A DNA stretch of 64,000 nucleotides from Hydrogenophaga sp. (GTDB lineage Bacteria > Pseudomonadota > Gammaproteobacteria > Burkholderiales > Burkholderiaceae_C). This document shows, piece by piece, positions 1,214-37,257 of this stretch. The DNA is taken from assembly GCA_018993155.1 (NCBI GenBank), contig JAGKSX010000065.1:1-64000 (forward strand), read 5' to 3'. Numbering within the stretch: position 1 is the first letter of the stretch; the number at the start of each line of letters is the position of its first letter. The position numbers and the translations under genes were made by a program. The notes under the pieces were generated by a model. It was not told where the DNA came from. It saw only the letters and a list, made by a program, of their open reading frames with translations, and did not search any database.

Positions 1214-1239
1214 AAAAAAAACCGGGCGACAGCCCGGTT
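1214..1239 (-). terminator. Rho-independent terminator of the Rieske/TRAP operon
   Basis: AACCGGGC (1220-1227) pairs with GCCCGGTT (1232-1239) around a GACA loop. On the minus strand this 8-bp stem is followed by a run of T residues (the complement of the A-tract at 1214-1221). It sits 18 nt beyond the TRAP gene stop and marks the end of the five-gene operon that starts at 6366. Confidence 0.85.
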
Positions 1240-1256: not shown

Positions 1257-2303
1257 TCAGGCCTTCTTGCCGTGCTTGGCGATCAGGGCCTTGGCGGTTT
1301 CGAGCAGCTTCTTGCCGTCGAAGCCGCGCTTGTCCATGTCCTGCACCCACTCCACTTCCACCAGGCGCGCCTTGCGCTTGAATTCCTGCGCTTCGGCCGA
1401 GGGGATGGTGTAGATGGTGTTGCCCTGCTTGACGGCGGCTTCACGGCCGGGCGCATCGCCGGCCTGCTGCACCTTGCCCAGCCAGCCGGAGGTCTCGATG
1501 CCCGAGTTCTTGTCGATGACGGCCTTGAGGTCGGGCGGCAGCGAGGCGTACTTGTTGCGGTTCATGCCCATCACGAAGGTGGTGGTGTAGAGCGCGCCGC
1601 CAGCGGGGTCGAACTCGCTGTGGAACTTGGTGAGCTCGTGCACCTTGACCGAGGGCACCACTTCCCAGGGGATCACGCAGCCGTCGATCACGCCCTTGGA
1701 GAGCGCATCGGGGATCTGCGGCAGCGGCATGCCCACGGGGATGGCGCCGAGGTAGCCCAGCATCTTGGTGATCTGGCGGGTCGGGCCGCGCACCTTGGAG
1801 CCGCGCAGGTCTTCCGCGGTCTTGATCTGCTTGCTGCGCATGTGGAACATGCCGGGGCCGTGCACCTGCAGGGCGATCGGCTGCACTTCCTTGTACTCGT
1901 CGGGGGCCATCGTGGTGATGTACTCCCAGAAGGCCCTGGAGGTGGCTTCGGCGTTGTTCATCATGAACGGCAGCTCGAACACTTCGGTGCGCGGGAAGCG
2001 GCCCGGGGTGTTGCCCGGCAGGGTCCAGACGATGTCCACCACGCCGTCGCGGGCCTGGTCGAACAGCTGCACGGGCGTGCCGCCCAGTTGCATGGCGGGA
2101 TAACCTTCGAACTTGATCCGGCCGCCGGATTCCTTCTCGACCTTGTCCATCCATGCCTTGTGCATGTTGATGTACACGTTGGACTGAGGCGCCATGAACG
2201 TGTGGAACTTGAGCGTGACGCTTTGTTGGGCGAAGCCTGTGAGCGCGGGTGCGCCGAGGGCCACGGCCGCACCGGACTGGAGCAGGGTTCTGCGTTGAAT
2301 CAT
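1257..2303 (-). CDS. TRAP transporter substrate-binding protein, DctP family
   Basis: A 348-residue exported protein. The N-terminus has paired arginines and a hydrophobic stretch (MIQRRTLLQSGAAVALG) ending near FAQ, a Sec or Tat type signal. The mature part has the DctP-family layout, including VDIVWTLPGNTPGRFP and the region around the conserved binding arginine (LRGSKVRGPTRQ). It would capture a carboxylate or other organic anion in the periplasm. No DctQ/DctM membrane genes are in the window, so its permease must be elsewhere. It is the last gene of the minus-strand operon, 102 nt after the FAH-family gene, which suggests that it delivers the substrate of that pathway. Confidence 0.85.
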   Translation of the reverse strand: MIQRRTLLQSGAAVALGAPALTGFAQQSVTLKFHTFMAPQSNVYINMHKAWMDKVEKESGGRIKFEGYPAMQLGGTPVQLFDQARDGVVDIVWTLPGNTPGRFPRTEVFELPFMMNNAEATSRAFWEYITTMAPDEYKEVQPIALQVHGPGMFHMRSKQIKTAEDLRGSKVRGPTRQITKMLGYLGAIPVGMPLPQIPDALSKGVIDGCVIPWEVVPSVKVHELTKFHSEFDPAGGALYTTTFVMGMNRNKYASLPPDLKAVIDKNSGIETSGWLGKVQQAGDAPGREAAVKQGNTIYTIPSAEAQEFKRKARLVEVEWVQDMDKRGFDGKKLLETAKALIAKHGKKA

Positions 2304-2405
2304 GTTGAAAGTCTCCTGGGGTCAAAGAAAAACGGGAAAAGCATATGTCAGGCCAGGTCGTTTTCGTGAGAGGTCTAACCCTCGGATGCGACCTGCGTCA
2401 CGTTC

Positions 2406-3110
2406 TCACACCACGCGCACCGAAACGGGCGTGAGGCCGTCCACGCCGCCGTGCAGGGTGTCGCCGCTCACCACCGCTGCCACGCCTTCGGGCGTGCCGG
2501 TGTAGATCAGGTCGCCGGGTTGCAGTTCCCAGGCGGCCGACAGGTGTTCGATGGTCTCGGCCACATTCCAGATCAGCTTGGCCACGGTGCTGCGCTGGCG
2601 GTCCGCGCCATTGACCTGCAACCAGATCGGCGCCTCGTTCACGTTGCCGGCCTGCGCGGCCGGGGTGATGGGGCCGATGGGCGCGGACTGGTCGTAGGCC
2701 TTGCCGATGCACCAGGGGCGGCCCTGCTTCTTCATGTCGTTCTGCAGGTCGCGGCGCGTCATGTCCAGGCCCACGGCATAACCCCAGATGTGCTTCGCGG
2801 CATCGGCGGCTTTGATGTTCTTGCCGCCCACGCCGATGGCCACCACGAGTTCGATCTCGTGGTGCAGGTTGCCGGTGAGGCTGGGGTAGGGCATGGACGC
2901 GGTCTGGCCTGCCTCGGCGACCACGATGGCATCGGCCGGCTTGAGGAAGAAGAAGGGCGGCTCGCGGCCGGTGAAGCCCATCTCCTTGGCGTGCTCTTCG
3001 TAGTTGCGGCCTACGCAGTAGATGCGGTGCACGGGGAAGCGCTCGGCACGCCCGACCACGGGCACGCTCACGGTGGCCGGGGGGGCAAAGAGGTAGGAGG
3101 TGTCTGGCAT
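2406..3110 (-). CDS. Fumarylacetoacetate hydrolase family protein (fumarylpyruvate hydrolase-like)
   Basis: A 234-residue, single-domain FAH-family enzyme. It has the family's [16 protein letters not shown] entry motif, [10 protein letters not shown], the metal-binding [11 protein letters not shown] segment (Glu and Glu-x ligands) and the YTGTPEGV turn. The family cleaves C-C bonds in beta-diketo acids or decarboxylates them in aromatic-ring catabolism. The length and N-terminus resemble fumarylpyruvate hydrolases of gentisate pathways. It follows the ferredoxin gene by about 70 nt in the same operon. That position implies a late step acting on a ring-cleavage product of the oxygenase's substrate. 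The substrate assignment is inference. Confidence 0.85.
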
Positions 3111-3179
3111 GGCGGATGGTTTTGTTGGAATCGAAGATCACCAGTGTGCCATGGGCGCAGACCGCCTTTCGGTGCGTCC

Positions 3180-3503
3180 TCAATGCTGGGACGCGGGCAG
3201 CCGGACCTCCATGCCATCCATCTCCGGCGTGAGCTTGATCTGGCAACTCAGGCGGCTGTCAGCCTCCACCGGGCTGGACGCGAAGTCCAGCATGTCGATC
3301 TCGTCGGGCACCGGGGTGCTCAGCATGGCGGCCCAGGGCGCCCCGATCATCACGTGGCAGGTGGCGCAGGTGAGGCTGCCGCCGCAGTCGGCCTCGACGC
3401 CCTGGATGTTCGCGTCCACCGCGGCCTTCATCAGGCTCTGGCCGGGCTCGGCCTGGATGGCCTGCACCGTGCCATCGGCGTTGAGGAATCGGATCGAGAT
3501 CAT
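3180..3503 (-). CDS. 2Fe-2S ferredoxin, plant/adrenodoxin type
   Basis: A 107-residue protein with cluster ligands Cys40, Cys46, Cys49 and Cys87 (C-G-G-S-L-T-C-A-T-C, then the distal LSC), the spacing of vertebrate/bacterial adrenodoxin-like ferredoxins. It probably passes electrons to the Rieske oxygenase encoded two genes upstream. I chose ATG 3503, 8 nt after the glutamine-synthetase-like stop. A TTG at 3515 would add four residues but overlaps the preceding stop and adds nothing conserved. No ferredoxin reductase is encoded nearby, so a shared cellular reductase must supply electrons. Confidence 0.9.
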   Translation of the reverse strand: MISIRFLNADGTVQAIQAEPGQSLMKAAVDANIQGVEADCGGSLTCATCHVMIGAPWAAMLSTPVPDEIDMLDFASSPVEADSRLSCQIKLTPEMDGMEVRLPASQH

Positions 3504-3511
3504 GGGCGGGC

Positions 3512-4990
3512 TCAAGTCCTGGCGAAGTACTCGCGGCGCTCGAAGTCGGTCTTGTCTTCGGCTTGCGCGTGGCGGTCGATCTCGCTTTGCTTGATGCGGC
3601 AGAAGTAGCGCACGAAGTCGTCACCCAGCGCTGCGCACAGCGCGCTGTCGGCGCGCAGCGCATCCAGGCCTTCACCCAGCGAAGAGGGCAGCTTCTGGTT
3701 GTCGGCCGCGTAGGGCGATTCGCTCGCGGGCGGCGGCAGCGTGGCGCGGGCCAGGCCGTCGAGTCCGGCGTGGATCTGCGCGGCCATGTAGAGGTAGGGG
3801 TTGGCGGCGGGCTCACCCACGCGGTTCTCGATGCGGGTGGCGTTGTCGCCGGCCGCACCCACCACGCGCAGCATGGCGCCCCGGTTGTCCTGCCCCCACA
3901 GCGCGGCCTGCGGCGCGAGCGCGTTGGGCCGGAAGCGGGCAAAGCCGTTGATGGTGGGCGTGCACAGCACCGTCATGCCGCGCGCGTGCGACAGCAGGCC
4001 GGCAAGCCAGTGCGCGCCCGCCCCGGACAGCGTGTGCGTGGCGTCGGTGCGGGTGGTGCCGGGTGCGGGCGTGTCGCGCACGCAGGCGTTGCGGCCGGTC
4101 CGCAGGTCCACCAGCGACTGGTGCAGGTGCCAGCCGCTGGACATGATGTTGGGGAACGGCGGGCGGCACATGAAGGTGGCGTGGTATCCCGCGCGCCGCA
4201 GCGCCTGGCGCACACCGTTGCGGAACAGCACCATCTGGTCGGCGGCGGTGAGGGCGTCGGTGGCGTCGAACACCGCTTCCACCTGGCTCGGGCCGAGTTC
4301 GATCTCCAGCGACTGCAGCGGCAGGCCCAAAGCCTGCGCGGTGCGCTGCACGATGCGCAGCGGCTCGTCGCTCATGTCGCCCATGGCCTCGGCCTGCAGG
4401 TTGTAGCCGGGGTGGATCATCTCCACCGTGGGCGGCAGGCCGGGCCAGGCCGCGAGTTCGGGGTCGAGCTGAGGGCGGGTGTCGGTGATGCGGTAGATGT
4501 GGAATTCCACCTCCAGCCCGGTCTTGAGGCCGTAGCCGGCCTGGCCCAGTTTGGCCAGCGCGGTCTGCAGCATGCCGCGCGCGTCCAGCGGCACCGGCGT
4601 GCCGTCGGCGAACCAGGGCTGGCAGCGCAGCCAGCCGGTGCGCTCCAGCCAGGGCAGCACGGTGAAACTCTGCGGATCGGGCATGAGCATGAGGTTGGCC
4701 GCGCCGGCGAAGCCGGGCAGGCCGTCGGCGCCACCGGGCTCGAACACCTTCCAGGCCGTGCGGTCGGCCGTGTCCTTGAGCATCAGCGTGCCCACCATGC
4801 CCACGCCGTCGTTCAGCGCGCGCAGCGCTGCCTTGGCGGTGAGCGTCTTGCCGCGCAGCATGCCGTGGGCGTCGCCCCAGCCGAAGCGCACCAGCTCGAT
4901 GCCGCTGGCTTCAATGAGTTGGGCCACGCGCCGGCATTCGGCGTCGCGTTCGGGGGATTCGAGGCCGCAGCGTTGGGCGAACGACGTCAT
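3512..4990 (-). CDS. Glutamine synthetase-like gamma-glutamyl ligase
   Basis: A 492-residue protein of the glutamine synthetase fold. Recognisable catalytic pieces, in order: LEVEFHIY (metal-binding Glu pair), IELGPSQVEAVFD, SGWHLHQSL (GS nucleotide/metal His segment) and RIENRVGEPAANPYLYMAA (the C-terminal Arg/Asn motif). It is not a housekeeping GlnA in context: it overlaps the Rieske oxygenase gene by 4 nt (ATGA) and is followed by a ferredoxin. GS-like enzymes of this kind (TdnQ/AtdA1 in aniline catabolism) gamma-glutamylate an amine before oxygenation. A role here on an amine or arylamine is inference. ATG 4990 is fixed by the overlap; the frame extends further upstream but only as an antisense-like extension. 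Confidence 0.85.
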   Translation of the reverse strand: MTSFAQRCGLESPERDAECRRVAQLIEASGIELVRFGWGDAHGMLRGKTLTAKAALRALNDGVGMVGTLMLKDTADRTAWKVFEPGGADGLPGFAGAANLMLMPDPQSFTVLPWLERTGWLRCQPWFADGTPVPLDARGMLQTALAKLGQAGYGLKTGLEVEFHIYRITDTRPQLDPELAAWPGLPPTVEMIHPGYNLQAEAMGDMSDEPLRIVQRTAQALGLPLQSLEIELGPSQVEAVFDATDALTAADQMVLFRNGVRQALRRAGYHATFMCRPPFPNIMSSGWHLHQSLVDLRTGRNACVRDTPAPGTTRTDATHTLSGAGAHWLAGLLSHARGMTVLCTPTINGFARFRPNALAPQAALWGQDNRGAMLRVVGAAGDNATRIENRVGEPAANPYLYMAAQIHAGLDGLARATLPPPASESPYAADNQKLPSSLGEGLDALRADSALCAALGDDFVRYFCRIKQSEIDRHAQAEDKTDFERREYFART

Positions 4991-6366
4991 TTGGCGCCCG
5001 CCGTTTCCTCGGCGGAGGCCTTCTGGTGCCAGGGCGCGCCTTCGCGCTTCTCGCGCACCGCGTCCTGCCACCAGGTTTCCCAGCCCTGCGCGGGGGCGAT
5101 GCCGTCCACCGTGTCGGGGCCGGCAATGGCGCCGTGCAAGGCGGGGTCGGCCACGCCGGGGGCGGTGCCGCCTTGCTCCACAGCGTCGATGGCCTGCAGC
5201 AGCATGCGGCGGTTCGCCATCACCACCTTGTCGGTGGTGCCCAGGTGTTCGCGCGTGCGGTCCTGGATCGGGCCCATGCTCTCGCAGGCCCACTGGTCGT
5301 GCACGTTGATGTCGTCCTCGCCCATGCCGAGGTAGGTGCGGGTCTGCTGCTCTTCGGCGTTGAAGCCCCAGTTGTTGTGGCGGCCCGCCTTCGGGATGTA
5401 GTCGGGCAGGGTCACGGCCTGCAGGCGCGGCGTGCGCATGGCGTCCTTGTCCACCGGGCCGGTGAAGCTGGTGAAGAAGGCGTACCAGTAGTTGTGGGTG
5501 TCGTCCACCGGCACGTGCATCTGCGTGATGGTCATGGTCTCCGACAGCGGGATCACGAAGGTCTGCGGGAACACGGCATTGGTCACGCGCACGTGGGTCA
5601 GCTCGTCGGTCATGGGGCGCAGCGCGGTGAGCTGCAGGCCATAGGGCTTGGGCTCGAAGCTGATGAGGGGCTGGCCGAATTCGCGCATCACGCGCGTCAT
5701 GGGCCAGCGTTCGCCGCCCACGTCACCGGCGCTGGCGCCGCGGAACTGCTTGCCGTAGCTGTCTTCCAGCGAGCCGTCGTTGAAGAAGCGGTGCAGGTAG
5801 GAGGCGTGGGCCGGGTCGATGCCCACTTCCAGCGACTGGAGCCAGTTGCAGTGCCACAGGCCCTTGAAGGCGAAGGTGTGGCTTTCGGGCGCGGTGAAGC
5901 AGTCCAGCTCGGGGAAGGGCGGGGGCGTCTGGCCTTCGGGGCCGAACCAGCCGAACAGCACGCCGCTGCGCTGCACCAGCGGGTAGCTGCGCTGCTTGAT
6001 GCGCGTGCACATCTTGCTGCCGGCCGGTTCGGCCGGGGTGTCGATGCACTGGCCCGTGGTGTCGAACTTCCAGCCGTGGAAGGGGCAGCGGATGCCATCG
6101 CCTTCGTTGCGGCCGAAGGCGAGGTCGGCGCCGCGGTGCGGGCAGTCGCGATCGAGCAGGCCGAACTCGCCCTGGGCGTCGCGGAACAGCACGAAGTTCT
6201 GGCCCAGCACGCGCACCGCCTTCACGGGACGCACGGCCATCTGGGGATCCAGCGCGGGGTTGAATTCGTCCATCAGCGCCACCGGCTGCCAGTAGCGGCG
6301 CAGCAGCTCGCCACCGGGCGTGCCCGGTCCGACCTGGGTCATGCGTTGATTGAGTTCGGCTTTCAT
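4987..6366 (-). CDS. Rieske non-haem iron ring-hydroxylating oxygenase, alpha subunit
   Basis: A 459-residue oxygenase. The Rieske 2Fe-2S ligands are Cys75/His77 and Cys94/His97 (CPH, then CPFH). The mononuclear iron site follows with Asp184, His187 and His192 (D-P-A-H-A-S-Y-L-H). The family hydroxylates aromatic or alicyclic carbons using O2 and electrons from a ferredoxin. The sequence resembles the phenoxybenzoate-dioxygenase-like group, and no beta subunit is present. ATG 6366 has a GGAG ribosome site about 8 nt upstream; an in-frame start further out at 6447 lies beyond the promoter and is unlikely. It is the first gene of the operon and is divergent from a GntR regulator. Confidence 0.88.
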   Translation of the reverse strand: MKAELNQRMTQVGPGTPGGELLRRYWQPVALMDEFNPALDPQMAVRPVKAVRVLGQNFVLFRDAQGEFGLLDRDCPHRGADLAFGRNEGDGIRCPFHGWKFDTTGQCIDTPAEPAGSKMCTRIKQRSYPLVQRSGVLFGWFGPEGQTPPPFPELDCFTAPESHTFAFKGLWHCNWLQSLEVGIDPAHASYLHRFFNDGSLEDSYGKQFRGASAGDVGGERWPMTRVMREFGQPLISFEPKPYGLQLTALRPMTDELTHVRVTNAVFPQTFVIPLSETMTITQMHVPVDDTHNYWYAFFTSFTGPVDKDAMRTPRLQAVTLPDYIPKAGRHNNWGFNAEEQQTRTYLGMGEDDINVHDQWACESMGPIQDRTREHLGTTDKVVMANRRMLLQAIDAVEQGGTAPGVADPALHGAIAGPDTVDGIAPAQGWETWWQDAVREKREGAPWHQKASAEETAGAK

Positions 6367-6407: not shown

Positions 6408-6436
6408 GGTATACCGTTTTTTGATTTCGGTGTACA
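6408..6436. promoter_or_regulatory. Divergent promoter with two GntR-like operator repeats
   Basis: On the minus strand TGTACA (6431-6436) and TATACC (6408-6413) are separated by exactly 17 nt and form a plausible -35/-10 pair for the oxygenase operon. Two related sites, GGTATACC (6408-6415) and GGTGTACA (6429-6436), begin 21 bp apart, two helical turns. They cover both promoter boxes, as expected for a repressor. The adjacent regulator at 6446 is the obvious candidate to bind here. Confidence 0.5.
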
Positions 6437-36321: not shown

Positions 36322-37257
36322 ATGCAACGTCGCCCCCTATTGATGGCGGGCGGGGCCCTCGCGGTCACCGCCCTTGGAACCTACATGAGCACCTCGGCCT
36401 CCGCCCCTTCCTCCGCCGCCGGTCTGGCCGATCTGGCCGCCGCGCTGCCCGCCACCGAGCGCATGCCGGTGTTGTTCCTGGGGCATGGCAGCCCCATGAA
36501 CGCGATCGAGGACAACACCTGGCGCCGCAGCTGGCAGGCCCTGGGCCAGGAACTGCGCGCGCGGGGCACGCAGCCCAGCCTGATCCTCTGCATCTCGGCC
36601 CATTGGCTGACCCCCGGCTGGCAGCTGACCGCCATGAGCCAGCCGCCGACCATCCACGACTTCGGTGGCTTTCCACAGGCCCTGTTCGACCAGCAGTACC
36701 CGGCGCCGGGTTCGCCAACCATGGCGCGCGCCATCAGCGCCGCGGTGCGGCAGCCGGACTCCGGCCGTGCGCTGGACCTGGACGAGCGCGAATGGGGCCT
36801 GGACCACGGCACGTGGTCGGTGCTCAAGCCCATGTTCCCGGAGGCGAAGATCCCGGTCATCCAGCTCAGCATGGACTACCGCCGGCCCGCCGCCGAGCAC
36901 TTCGCGGTCGGCCGCCAGCTGGCGCAGCTGCGCGAGCGGGGTGTGCTGATCGTGGGCAGCGGCAACATCGTTCACAACCTGCGCACCATGCGGCGCGATG
37001 CGGCCGACAACCAGGCCTACGAGTGGGCGATCGAGTTCGACCGCATCACGGCCGAGCATCTCGCGCAGGGGCGGCTGGAAGCGCTCAACGACTTCCAGCA
37101 ACTGGGGGCCGTGGCGCAGATGGCGCACCCGAGCTGGGAGCACTACCTGCCGCTGCTGTACACGGCGGGTGCCGTGACCGACAAGGAGGAACCGCGCTTC
37201 TTCAACGACGGTTTCCAGGGCGCATCGATCTCCATGCGCTCGGTCGTCTGGAGCTAG
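36322..37257 (+). CDS. DODA-type extradiol ring-cleavage dioxygenase family protein (LigB superfamily)
   Basis: A 311-residue protein. The metal-site pieces of the 4,5-DOPA dioxygenase family (YgiD) are present: FLGHGSPMNAIEDN, CISAHWLTPG, LDHGTWSVLKPMFP and SGNIVHNLR, which give three His. It starts with MQRRPLLMAGGALAVTALG, a short twin-arginine-like signal not usual in YgiD, so it may be exported. A later ATG at 36385 would give a cytoplasmic form. No strong ribosome site precedes either. Substrate unknown; it should open or modify a catechol ring with a metal. Confidence 0.82.
   Translation: MQRRPLLMAGGALAVTALGTYMSTSASAPSSAAGLADLAAALPATERMPVLFLGHGSPMNAIEDNTWRRSWQALGQELRARGTQPSLILCISAHWLTPGWQLTAMSQPPTIHDFGGFPQALFDQQYPAPGSPTMARAISAAVRQPDSGRALDLDEREWGLDHGTWSVLKPMFPEAKIPVIQLSMDYRRPAAEHFAVGRQLAQLRERGVLIVGSGNIVHNLRTMRRDAADNQAYEWAIEFDRITAEHLAQGRLEALNDFQQLGAVAQMAHPSWEHYLPLLYTAGAVTDKEEPRFFNDGFQGASISMRSVVWS

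What the first reader, a model, noticed from the sequence alone, without database searches (positions are those of the whole stretch)
1257..6366. Glutamine-synthetase-like ligase coupled to a Rieske oxygenase: possible glutamylation-dependent amine catabolism
Five genes run as one unit: Rieske alpha, GS-like ligase (4-nt overlap), ferredoxin, FAH hydrolase and TRAP binding protein, ended by a terminator. In aniline catabolism a GS-like enzyme (TdnQ/AtdA1) glutamylates the amine before the dioxygenase acts. Here the amidotransferase-like partner, the oxygenase beta subunit and the reductase are missing, and a single-subunit oxygenase with its own ferredoxin is present. This looks like a different pathway, substrate unknown.
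Basis: partly seen in the sequence, partly recalled or inferred. Interest (0 to 1): 0.72.

Follow-up and report, generated by a model that had tools for sequence, protein, structure and literature searches.

The report
Sulfanilate-type (sad) arylamine oxygenase operon
This is the Hydrogenophaga copy of a published gene set (sad) in which a glutamine-synthetase-like enzyme most likely tags an aromatic amine with glutamate so that an oxygenase can strip off the nitrogen; the design is known, and only its natural substrate is still open.

Summary
The genes are real and placed as described, but this is not a new system. RO–GS-like–ferredoxin (6366→3180, minus strand) is the Hydrogenophaga sad operon, which in H. 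intermedia PBC carries out the first deamination of 4-aminobenzenesulfonate and was reported fairly conserved in all 14 Hydrogenophaga genomes compared (PMC5632844). An H. intermedia locus (L023) has the same order, with 79% (RO), 75% (GS), 60% (ferredoxin) identity. FAH and the TRAP protein are not core: in Polaromonas and Ramlibacter they end a neighbouring 3-hydroxybenzoate/gentisate cluster. Missing beta subunit and amidotransferase are normal for this subtype. One addition: at the position of NpaA1 tunnel residue Phe75, all 111 examined loci with a single-subunit oxygenase carry Lys and none of 9 with an alpha-beta oxygenase do, which predicts anionic arylamines as substrates. The natural one may be 4-aminobenzoate (about 0.4): pnbB, nitroreductase or pca genes sit near a few distant members and this genome has LigAB, but gentisate-type neighbours and pABA auxotrophy in the genus speak against it.

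The parts
4987..6366 (-). SadA-like Rieske non-haem iron oxygenase, single alpha subunit (LigXa_C / phthalate 4,5-dioxygenase type), 459 aa
   Evidence: Pfam Rieske + LigXa_C; nearest PDB sequences 9ina, 7fhr, 7fjl; Rieske motif CPH-x-CPFH from residue 75, Fe site DPAHASYLH from 184, likely acid ligand D357 by alignment; 79% to H. intermedia L023
3512..4990 (-). SadB-like GS-like arylamine gamma-glutamyl ligase (GoaS class), 492 aa
   Evidence: Gln-synt_C; best PDB hit NpaA1 8wwu, E 2.6e-103 against 1.8e-46 for the next; tree; residues; 75% to L023
4775..4777 (-). Codon (AAG) of Lys72 of the GS-like protein, at the position of NpaA1 Phe75
   Evidence: K in 111 of 111 loci with single-subunit oxygenase, in 0 of 9 with alpha-beta oxygenase
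3180..3503 (-). [2Fe-2S] ferredoxin of putidaredoxin/adrenodoxin type (the ferredoxin of the sad operon), 107 aa
   Evidence: Fer2; nearest PDB sequence 1e9m ferredoxin VI, E 3e-27, with terpredoxin and putidaredoxin among the next; 60% to L023
6446..7165 (+). Divergent GntR/FCD regulator, likely regulator of the operon
   Evidence: GntR + FCD; divergent beside RO in 47 of 80 loci
6408..6415 (.). GGTATACC palindrome, likely GntR operator (consensus AACGGTATACCGTT)
   Evidence: GTATAC in 31 of 47 GntR/RO intergenic regions against 0.22 expected from the rate in the loci; position checked
2406..3110 (-). Fumarylpyruvate-hydrolase-like FAH protein; neighbour from a 3-hydroxybenzoate/gentisate cluster, not core
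   Evidence: PDB 6j5y 1.2e-91, 4maq 'putative fumarylpyruvate hydrolase' 2.3e-69; follows 3HB 6-hydroxylase and gentisate dioxygenase in L031, L035, L053
1257..2303 (-). TRAP solute-binding protein DctP; same neighbouring cluster, not core
   Evidence: DctP; a DctM-like gene was found in 22 of 80 loci, in none of those titled Hydrogenophaga
1214..1239 (-). Intrinsic terminator
   Evidence: z -4.66, hairpin then T-run

Best explanation
The window carries the sad operon of a Hydrogenophaga-type bacterium: sadA (Rieske oxygenase), sadB (GS-like ligase) and the sad ferredoxin. SadB spends ATP to join L-glutamate through its gamma-carboxyl to the amino group of an arylamine that bears a para acid group (4-aminobenzenesulfonate in H. 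intermedia; naturally perhaps 4-aminobenzoate). SadA, fed with electrons from an unlinked NAD(P)H reductase through the ferredoxin, adds O2 at the amide-bearing carbon and its neighbour. The diol then expels the nitrogen as glutamine and leaves a catechol (4-sulfocatechol, or protocatechuate from 4-aminobenzoate). Shown by sequence: gene order, families, orthology to an H. intermedia locus, ligase class, conserved catalytic residues. Shown by others in PBC: the sad operon is responsible for deamination of 4-aminobenzenesulfonate to 4-sulfocatechol. Inferred: glutamylation by SadB itself, electron path, release of glutamine, and regulation by GntR at the GGTATACC site.
For: Same order and orthologous proteins in H. 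intermedia MER 62, L023: RO 79, GS 75, Fd 60, GntR 90%. PMC5632844: sad operon (sadA, sadB glutamine synthetase, a ferredoxin) responsible for deamination of 4-aminobenzenesulfonate, fairly conserved in all 14 genomes compared. GS tree: window inside a 12-row Comamonadaceae clade (100/100), within a 26-row clade (100/98) whose recognised oxygenase partners are all single-subunit and which includes N. resinovorum SA1, named in PMC5632844 as a 4-aminobenzenesulfonate degrader; the pLME1 ligase and NpaA1 next, GlnA and PuuA outside a branch of 2.1. ATP, metal and glutamate residues kept (E129, E131, E212, E220, H269, R321, R339, R344, R355, E357, R359 in StGS numbering, a numbering and roles I recalled); Glu327 of the ammonia flap is Leu. 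The phmmer hit to NpaA1 is far ahead of all true GS.
Against: PBC's own SadA/B/D sequences were not compared; L023 is a proxy from a strain named as the same species. No activity data for this copy, and no paper that I could read shows SadB itself making a glutamyl amide. The operon lacks a linked reductase, and no Reductase_C (PF14759) ferredoxin reductase was found in this genome, which is 94% complete. No intradiol alpha/beta pair for 4-sulfocatechol was seen: three scattered PF00775 hits, of which the two scanned (L121, L123) fall below the protocatechuate cut-offs; L122 was not scanned. So this strain may not live on sulfanilate.
Confidence: 0.88

Rival explanations
1. It is an aniline-type dioxygenase (Tdn/Atd/Dca/Npa) that has lost parts.
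For: The GS-like protein is 42% identical to the ligase of pLME1 (which I take for DcaQ from recall; the record says only 'glutamine synthetase family protein') and 38% to NpaA1; same ligase class.
Against: The oxygenase is of another family (LigXa_C against Ring_hydroxyl_A); no beta subunit, amidotransferase or FNR-type reductase beside it; the two architectures fall in separate GS clades, differ at the Phe75/Lys position and coexist in genome G107.
Confidence: 0.05
2. The natural substrate is another acidic arylamine whose product enters a gentisate-type pathway, so that the FAH and TRAP genes do serve the same pathway in Hydrogenophaga.
For: 3-hydroxybenzoate 6-hydroxylase, gentisate dioxygenase and FAH lie next to the core in many Comamonadaceae loci (GDO hit in 27 of 80, FAH in 46); a gentisate-dioxygenase-like gene lies directly before RO-GS in L163 and near it in L159 and L161.
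Against: Dioxygenation at an amide carbon gives an ortho-diol, not gentisate (chemistry, recalled); the cluster has a MarR-type gene of its own and is absent beside the core in Limnohabitans and Tepidicella loci; the L163 cupin is below the gentisate cut-off (288.6 against 442.1 bits).
Confidence: 0.2
3. The GS-like protein is a polyamine or alkylamine glutamyl ligase (PuuA, IpuC or GMAS type) only incidentally beside an oxygenase.
For: NCBIfam gamma-glutamylputrescine synthetase is its best-scoring model (210 bits).
Against: The model's cut-off is 650 bits; E. coli PuuA is 26% identical and lies outside the clade; RO was found beside GS in 79 of 80 loci, with ATGA overlap in 70 of 80. IpuC and GMAS were not in the tree.
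Confidence: 0.03

Closest known systems
sad operon, 4-aminobenzenesulfonate 3,4-dioxygenase of Hydrogenophaga intermedia PBC (SadA, SadB, ferredoxin)
   Same: Same genus, gene order and families; L023 (H. intermedia MER 62) orthologous at 60-79% in the three core proteins.
   Different: In this genome no 4-sulfocatechol (type II pcaGH) pair was seen, and the reductase was not found; activity not tested.
Aniline / 1-naphthylamine dioxygenase systems (AtdA, TdnQTA1A2B, Dca, NpaA1-A5)
   Same: GS-like arylamine glutamyl ligase feeding a Rieske oxygenase; catechol-type product.
   Different: Those examined have an alpha-beta oxygenase, and five of nine also an amidotransferase-like protein and an FNR-type reductase; their ligases have Phe, Leu, Val or Met (one Asp, alignment uncertain), not Lys, at the tunnel position. 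TdnQ and AtdA1 themselves were not in the data.
RO-GS region of Novosphingobium resinovorum SA1 plasmid pSA3 (L098)
   Same: RO-GS with ferredoxin and FAD reductase nearby; ligase in the same clade; the strain is a known sulfanilate degrader.
   Different: 45% identity; ferredoxin and reductase lie apart on the other strand; a CHMI-family protein lies beside the ligase. That these genes act on sulfanilate was not shown by any search.
Phthalate 4,5-dioxygenase / LigXa family of single-subunit Rieske oxygenases
   Same: Oxygenase family; use of a separate putidaredoxin-type ferredoxin, as in LigXa (recalled).
   Different: Those act on free acids without a glutamyl ligase (recalled).

Membership tests
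sad operon (4-aminobenzenesulfonate 3,4-dioxygenase system) | Orthologues of SadA, SadB and the sad ferredoxin | tested here: met
   By proxy: H. intermedia MER 62 L023, 79/75/60%; the PBC proteins named in PMC5632844 were not themselves compared
sad operon (4-aminobenzenesulfonate 3,4-dioxygenase system) | Gene order oxygenase, GS-like, ferredoxin | tested here: met
sad operon (4-aminobenzenesulfonate 3,4-dioxygenase system) | A reductase encoded elsewhere in the genome | tested here: inconclusive
   No PF14759 protein in the genome; other reductase families not searched
sad operon (4-aminobenzenesulfonate 3,4-dioxygenase system) | Converts 4-aminobenzenesulfonate to 4-sulfocatechol | not testable with these tools
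   Needs enzyme or strain assay
GoaS (glutamyl organic amide synthetase; NpaA1, AtdA1) | Groups with GoaS, apart from GlnA | tested here: met
   Tree; PDB ranking
GoaS (glutamyl organic amide synthetase; NpaA1, AtdA1) | Amine-pocket loop present, ammonia-site residues of GS lost | tested here: met
   Loop aligned, F75 replaced by K; E327 to L, Y179 to L; the D50 column was not reliably aligned (G in the window, D in L006 and others)
Aniline dioxygenase system (Tdn/Atd/Dca/Npa) | Alpha-beta oxygenase, amidotransferase-like protein and FNR-type reductase | tested here: not met
   None beside the operon (probes on the window stretch L177)
True glutamine synthetase GlnA | Passes the GlnA model and groups with GlnA | tested here: not met
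   183 against cut-off 429 bits; own GlnA is L001, grouping with E. coli GlnA
PuuA (gamma-glutamylputrescine synthetase) | Passes the model NF045547 | tested here: not met
   210 against cut-off 650 bits

The most novel reading that the evidence does not exclude
sad operons are not sulfanilate genes by origin. They are an overlooked natural route, found in Comamonadaceae and scattered through other Burkholderiales and some Alphaproteobacteria, in which 4-aminobenzoate (vitamin precursor and folate breakdown product) is glutamylated and then dioxygenated to protocatechuate. A conserved Lys (window Lys72) in place of the tunnel Phe of NpaA1-type ligases would be the specificity switch for anionic arylamines, and could be used to predict substrates of unassigned arylamine ligases.
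Probability: 0.4. Interest if true: 0.55.

Novelty: already known. Interest (0 to 1): 0.3.

Why it matters
It settles a finding flagged as a new pathway: the locus is the sad operon. What it adds is a directly testable hint to a question the sad authors left open, namely which natural compound the enzyme evolved for. The single residue that separates the two architectures in the loci examined (Lys against Phe, Leu, Val or Met) offers a simple rule for the kind of amine, acidic or neutral, that such ligases may take, useful for predicting breakdown of dye, drug and herbicide amines.

Tried and rejected
GlnA and PuuA assignments: rejected. Degenerate aniline system: rejected. FAH and DctP as pathway members: rejected as core, since in Polaromonas and Ramlibacter loci they end a MarR / 3-hydroxybenzoate 6-hydroxylase / gentisate dioxygenase / FAH / DctM / DctP cluster and they were not found beside the core in Limnohabitans and Tepidicella loci. 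Whether Hydrogenophaga lost the middle genes or the others gained them was not resolved; L027 and L047 keep MarR, FAH, DctM and DctP but gave no hydroxylase or gentisate dioxygenase hit.

Led nowhere: a literature search by gene families and one for 3-aminobenzoate clusters; the promoter/terminator consensus scan (missed the terminator that folding supports); the LigB hit inside the window at 36472-37188, read by eye as a DODA/YgiD-type dioxygenase and unrelated. No structure was predicted: a monomer model would not show the inter-subunit amine pocket.
Full report
What is there. On the minus strand of window 1257-6366 lie a single-subunit Rieske oxygenase (RO, 459 aa), a glutamine-synthetase-like protein (492 aa), a putidaredoxin-type [2Fe-2S] ferredoxin (107 aa), a fumarylpyruvate-hydrolase-like FAH protein (234 aa) and a TRAP solute-binding protein (348 aa), closed by a strong intrinsic terminator. 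The RO stop and GS start share ATGA; the same 4-nt overlap is found in 70 of 80 related loci. A GntR/FCD regulator is divergent, and the 79-bp gap holds a GGTATACC palindrome. GTATAC occurs in 31 of 47 GntR/RO intergenic regions against 0.22 expected from the rate in the loci; in L023 the site reads AACGGGATACCGTT, one base off. The loci are related to one another, so this shows conservation rather than 31 independent events.

What it is. The ligase's closest solved relative is NpaA1 (8wwu, E 2.6e-103; the next, a true GS, 1.8e-46), the 1-naphthylamine glutamyl ligase of PMC11335346 (passages seen). A paper on Hydrogenophaga (PMC5632844; parts 1-3 of 4 read, passages) describes the sad operon of H. 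[quoted passage not shown] (Its figure legend calls the ferredoxin sadC, while the accessions listed are SadA, SadB and SadD.) It reports the operon as fairly conserved in all Hydrogenophaga genomes compared (14), and its authors suspect a natural substrate of similar shape. In an H. intermedia locus held here (L023, strain MER 62) order and proteins match: GntR 90, RO 79, GS 75, Fd 60, FAH 86, DctP 88, NUDIX 85%. The window is therefore an orthologue of the sad operon. From recall, not from a call: the 2012 cloning paper reported that sadB was essential for activity in E. coli, with the reductase gene found separately; that paper is not held.

Genus. The nearest loci are titled Hydrogenophaga. 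The same-genus genome G107 has a contig of 104808 bases, the length of plasmid NZ_CP044974.1 of Hydrogenophaga sp. PBL-H3.

Ligase tree and residues. In a tree of 39 GS proteins the window sits in a Comamonadaceae clade of 12 (100/100), inside a clade of 26 (100/98) with Cupriavidus, Caballeronia, Methylobacterium, Polaromonas JS666 and the sulfanilate degrader N. resinovorum SA1. The pLME1 ligase (DcaQ by recall) and NpaA1 lie in another clade, and GlnA, PuuA and the genome's four other GS proteins are outside on long branches whose own order is unsure. Residues for ATP, metals and glutamate are kept; the Glu327 ammonia flap is Leu (residue roles recalled). The curated GlnA and PuuA models are missed widely (183 of 429 bits and 210 of 650).

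Two builds. In 44 stretches probed, the window's own included, ligases of the window's clade go with single-subunit oxygenases and in some also a ferredoxin and FAD reductase; two of them (L111, L157) showed no oxygenase hit. Nine go with alpha-beta oxygenases, and of these L099, L100, L107, L108 and L167 also have an amidotransferase and an FNR-type reductase. In 123 loci the residue aligned with NpaA1 Phe75, one of three aromatic tunnel residues (F75A almost completely lost aniline activity), is Lys in 111 of 111 with single-subunit oxygenase, in 0 of 9 with alpha-beta oxygenase (4 F, 2 L, V, M, and one D that may be misaligned), and in 2 of 3 where no oxygenase was recognised. Caveats: 80 of the 123 are close Comamonadaceae relatives, one locus is in twice (L036 and L149), and the Lys clade may reflect a single event. 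Of the other two tunnel residues, Phe86 is kept in the window and Trp235 is Leu. Lys in the amine tunnel fits an anionic ring substituent such as sulfonate or carboxylate; this is inference.

Neighbours that are not part of it. In Polaromonas, Ramlibacter and others the ferredoxin is followed by MarR, 3-hydroxybenzoate 6-hydroxylase (548 bits, cut-off 459, in L035), gentisate 1,2-dioxygenase (528, cut-off 442, in L035), FAH, DctM and DctP. FAH was found in 46 of 80 loci, DctP in 42, gentisate dioxygenase in 27 (contig ends make these lower bounds). Limnohabitans and Tepidicella loci have the core without any of these. In the window's genome a 3-hydroxybenzoate 6-hydroxylase (710 bits), a gentisate-dioxygenase-like gene (244 bits, under the cut-off) and another FAH-like gene (by eye) sit on a different contig (L086).

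Spread. Ligase matches at E <= 1e-100 were found in 7 of 369 genomes of the class and 21 of 399 of the order, the window's own and G107 included in both. Of the 7, G345 is of the alpha-beta build and G213 showed no oxygenase hit; four of the 21 (G107, G747, G606, G378) also hold an alpha-beta type. So outside Hydrogenophaga the trait is patchy. The collection scan kept only the best 80 of 578 confirmed stretches.

Natural substrate. For 4-aminobenzoate: PnbB (4-hydroxylaminobenzoate lyase, confirmed by Pfam in L095 and L096; by tblastn elsewhere) is near the core in 4 of 44 stretches (L095, L096, L103, L104) and nitroreductase in 4 (L095, L096, L103, L105); protocatechuate genes are near in 2 (L111: pcaHGCDB annotated; L153: PcaB, C and D by tblastn at 34-37%). 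The window's genome has LigAB (PCA_ligA 236 bits, cut-off 109) with a LigI-like gene (by eye), and a second LigAB-like pair, but no intradiol pair for 4-sulfocatechol was seen. Against: most of the 44 stretches show neither pnbB nor pca genes; gentisate-type genes are the commoner neighbours; PBC needs 4-aminobenzoate as a vitamin and several Hydrogenophaga lack pabB, so degrading it would be odd; and LigAB is common in the family (recalled). No control for how often such genes turn up by chance near other loci was run. I give 4-aminobenzoate about 0.4.

Electron supply. No Reductase_C ferredoxin reductase was found in this genome, nor in 6 of 12 others searched out of the 20 further ligase-bearing genomes, so another reductase family must serve the ferredoxin, or an assembly gap hides it.

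Literature limits. Ten searches of the held open-access library were made. I saw no mention of the Lys/Phe difference in the passages read, but most subscription papers are not held, so I do not claim it is unpublished.

Noticed in passing
window 6408-6415 and the GntR/RO gap of 47 loci: A conserved AACGGTATACCGTT palindrome, likely the operator of the GntR/FCD regulator; exact GTATAC is missing from 16 of the 47 gaps, but one of these (L023) has a one-base variant.
   Followed up: partly
L163 11803-12783, also L159 and L161: A gentisate-dioxygenase-like cupin (289 bits, below cut-off) lies directly upstream of RO-GS in L163, and GDO-like hits lie near it in L159 and L161, hinting at another substrate for that subgroup.
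   Followed up: partly
L167 and L168 (genome G107): One genome holds both builds: a sad operon on its 4.4-Mb contig and an aniline-type cluster on a 104808-base contig that matches plasmid NZ_CP044974.1 in length.
   Followed up: partly
L024, L029, L041, L057, L060, L063, L068: RO-GS pairs without a recognisable ferredoxin beside them.
   Followed up: partly
L111 7382-7735 and L098 8569-8910: A small CHMI-family protein (PF02962, just above cut-off) follows the ligase in these alphaproteobacterial loci; role unknown.
   Followed up: no
window 36472-37188: LigB-family ORF, read by eye as a DODA/YgiD-type dioxygenase with an N-terminal signal-like stretch; unrelated to the finding.
   Followed up: no
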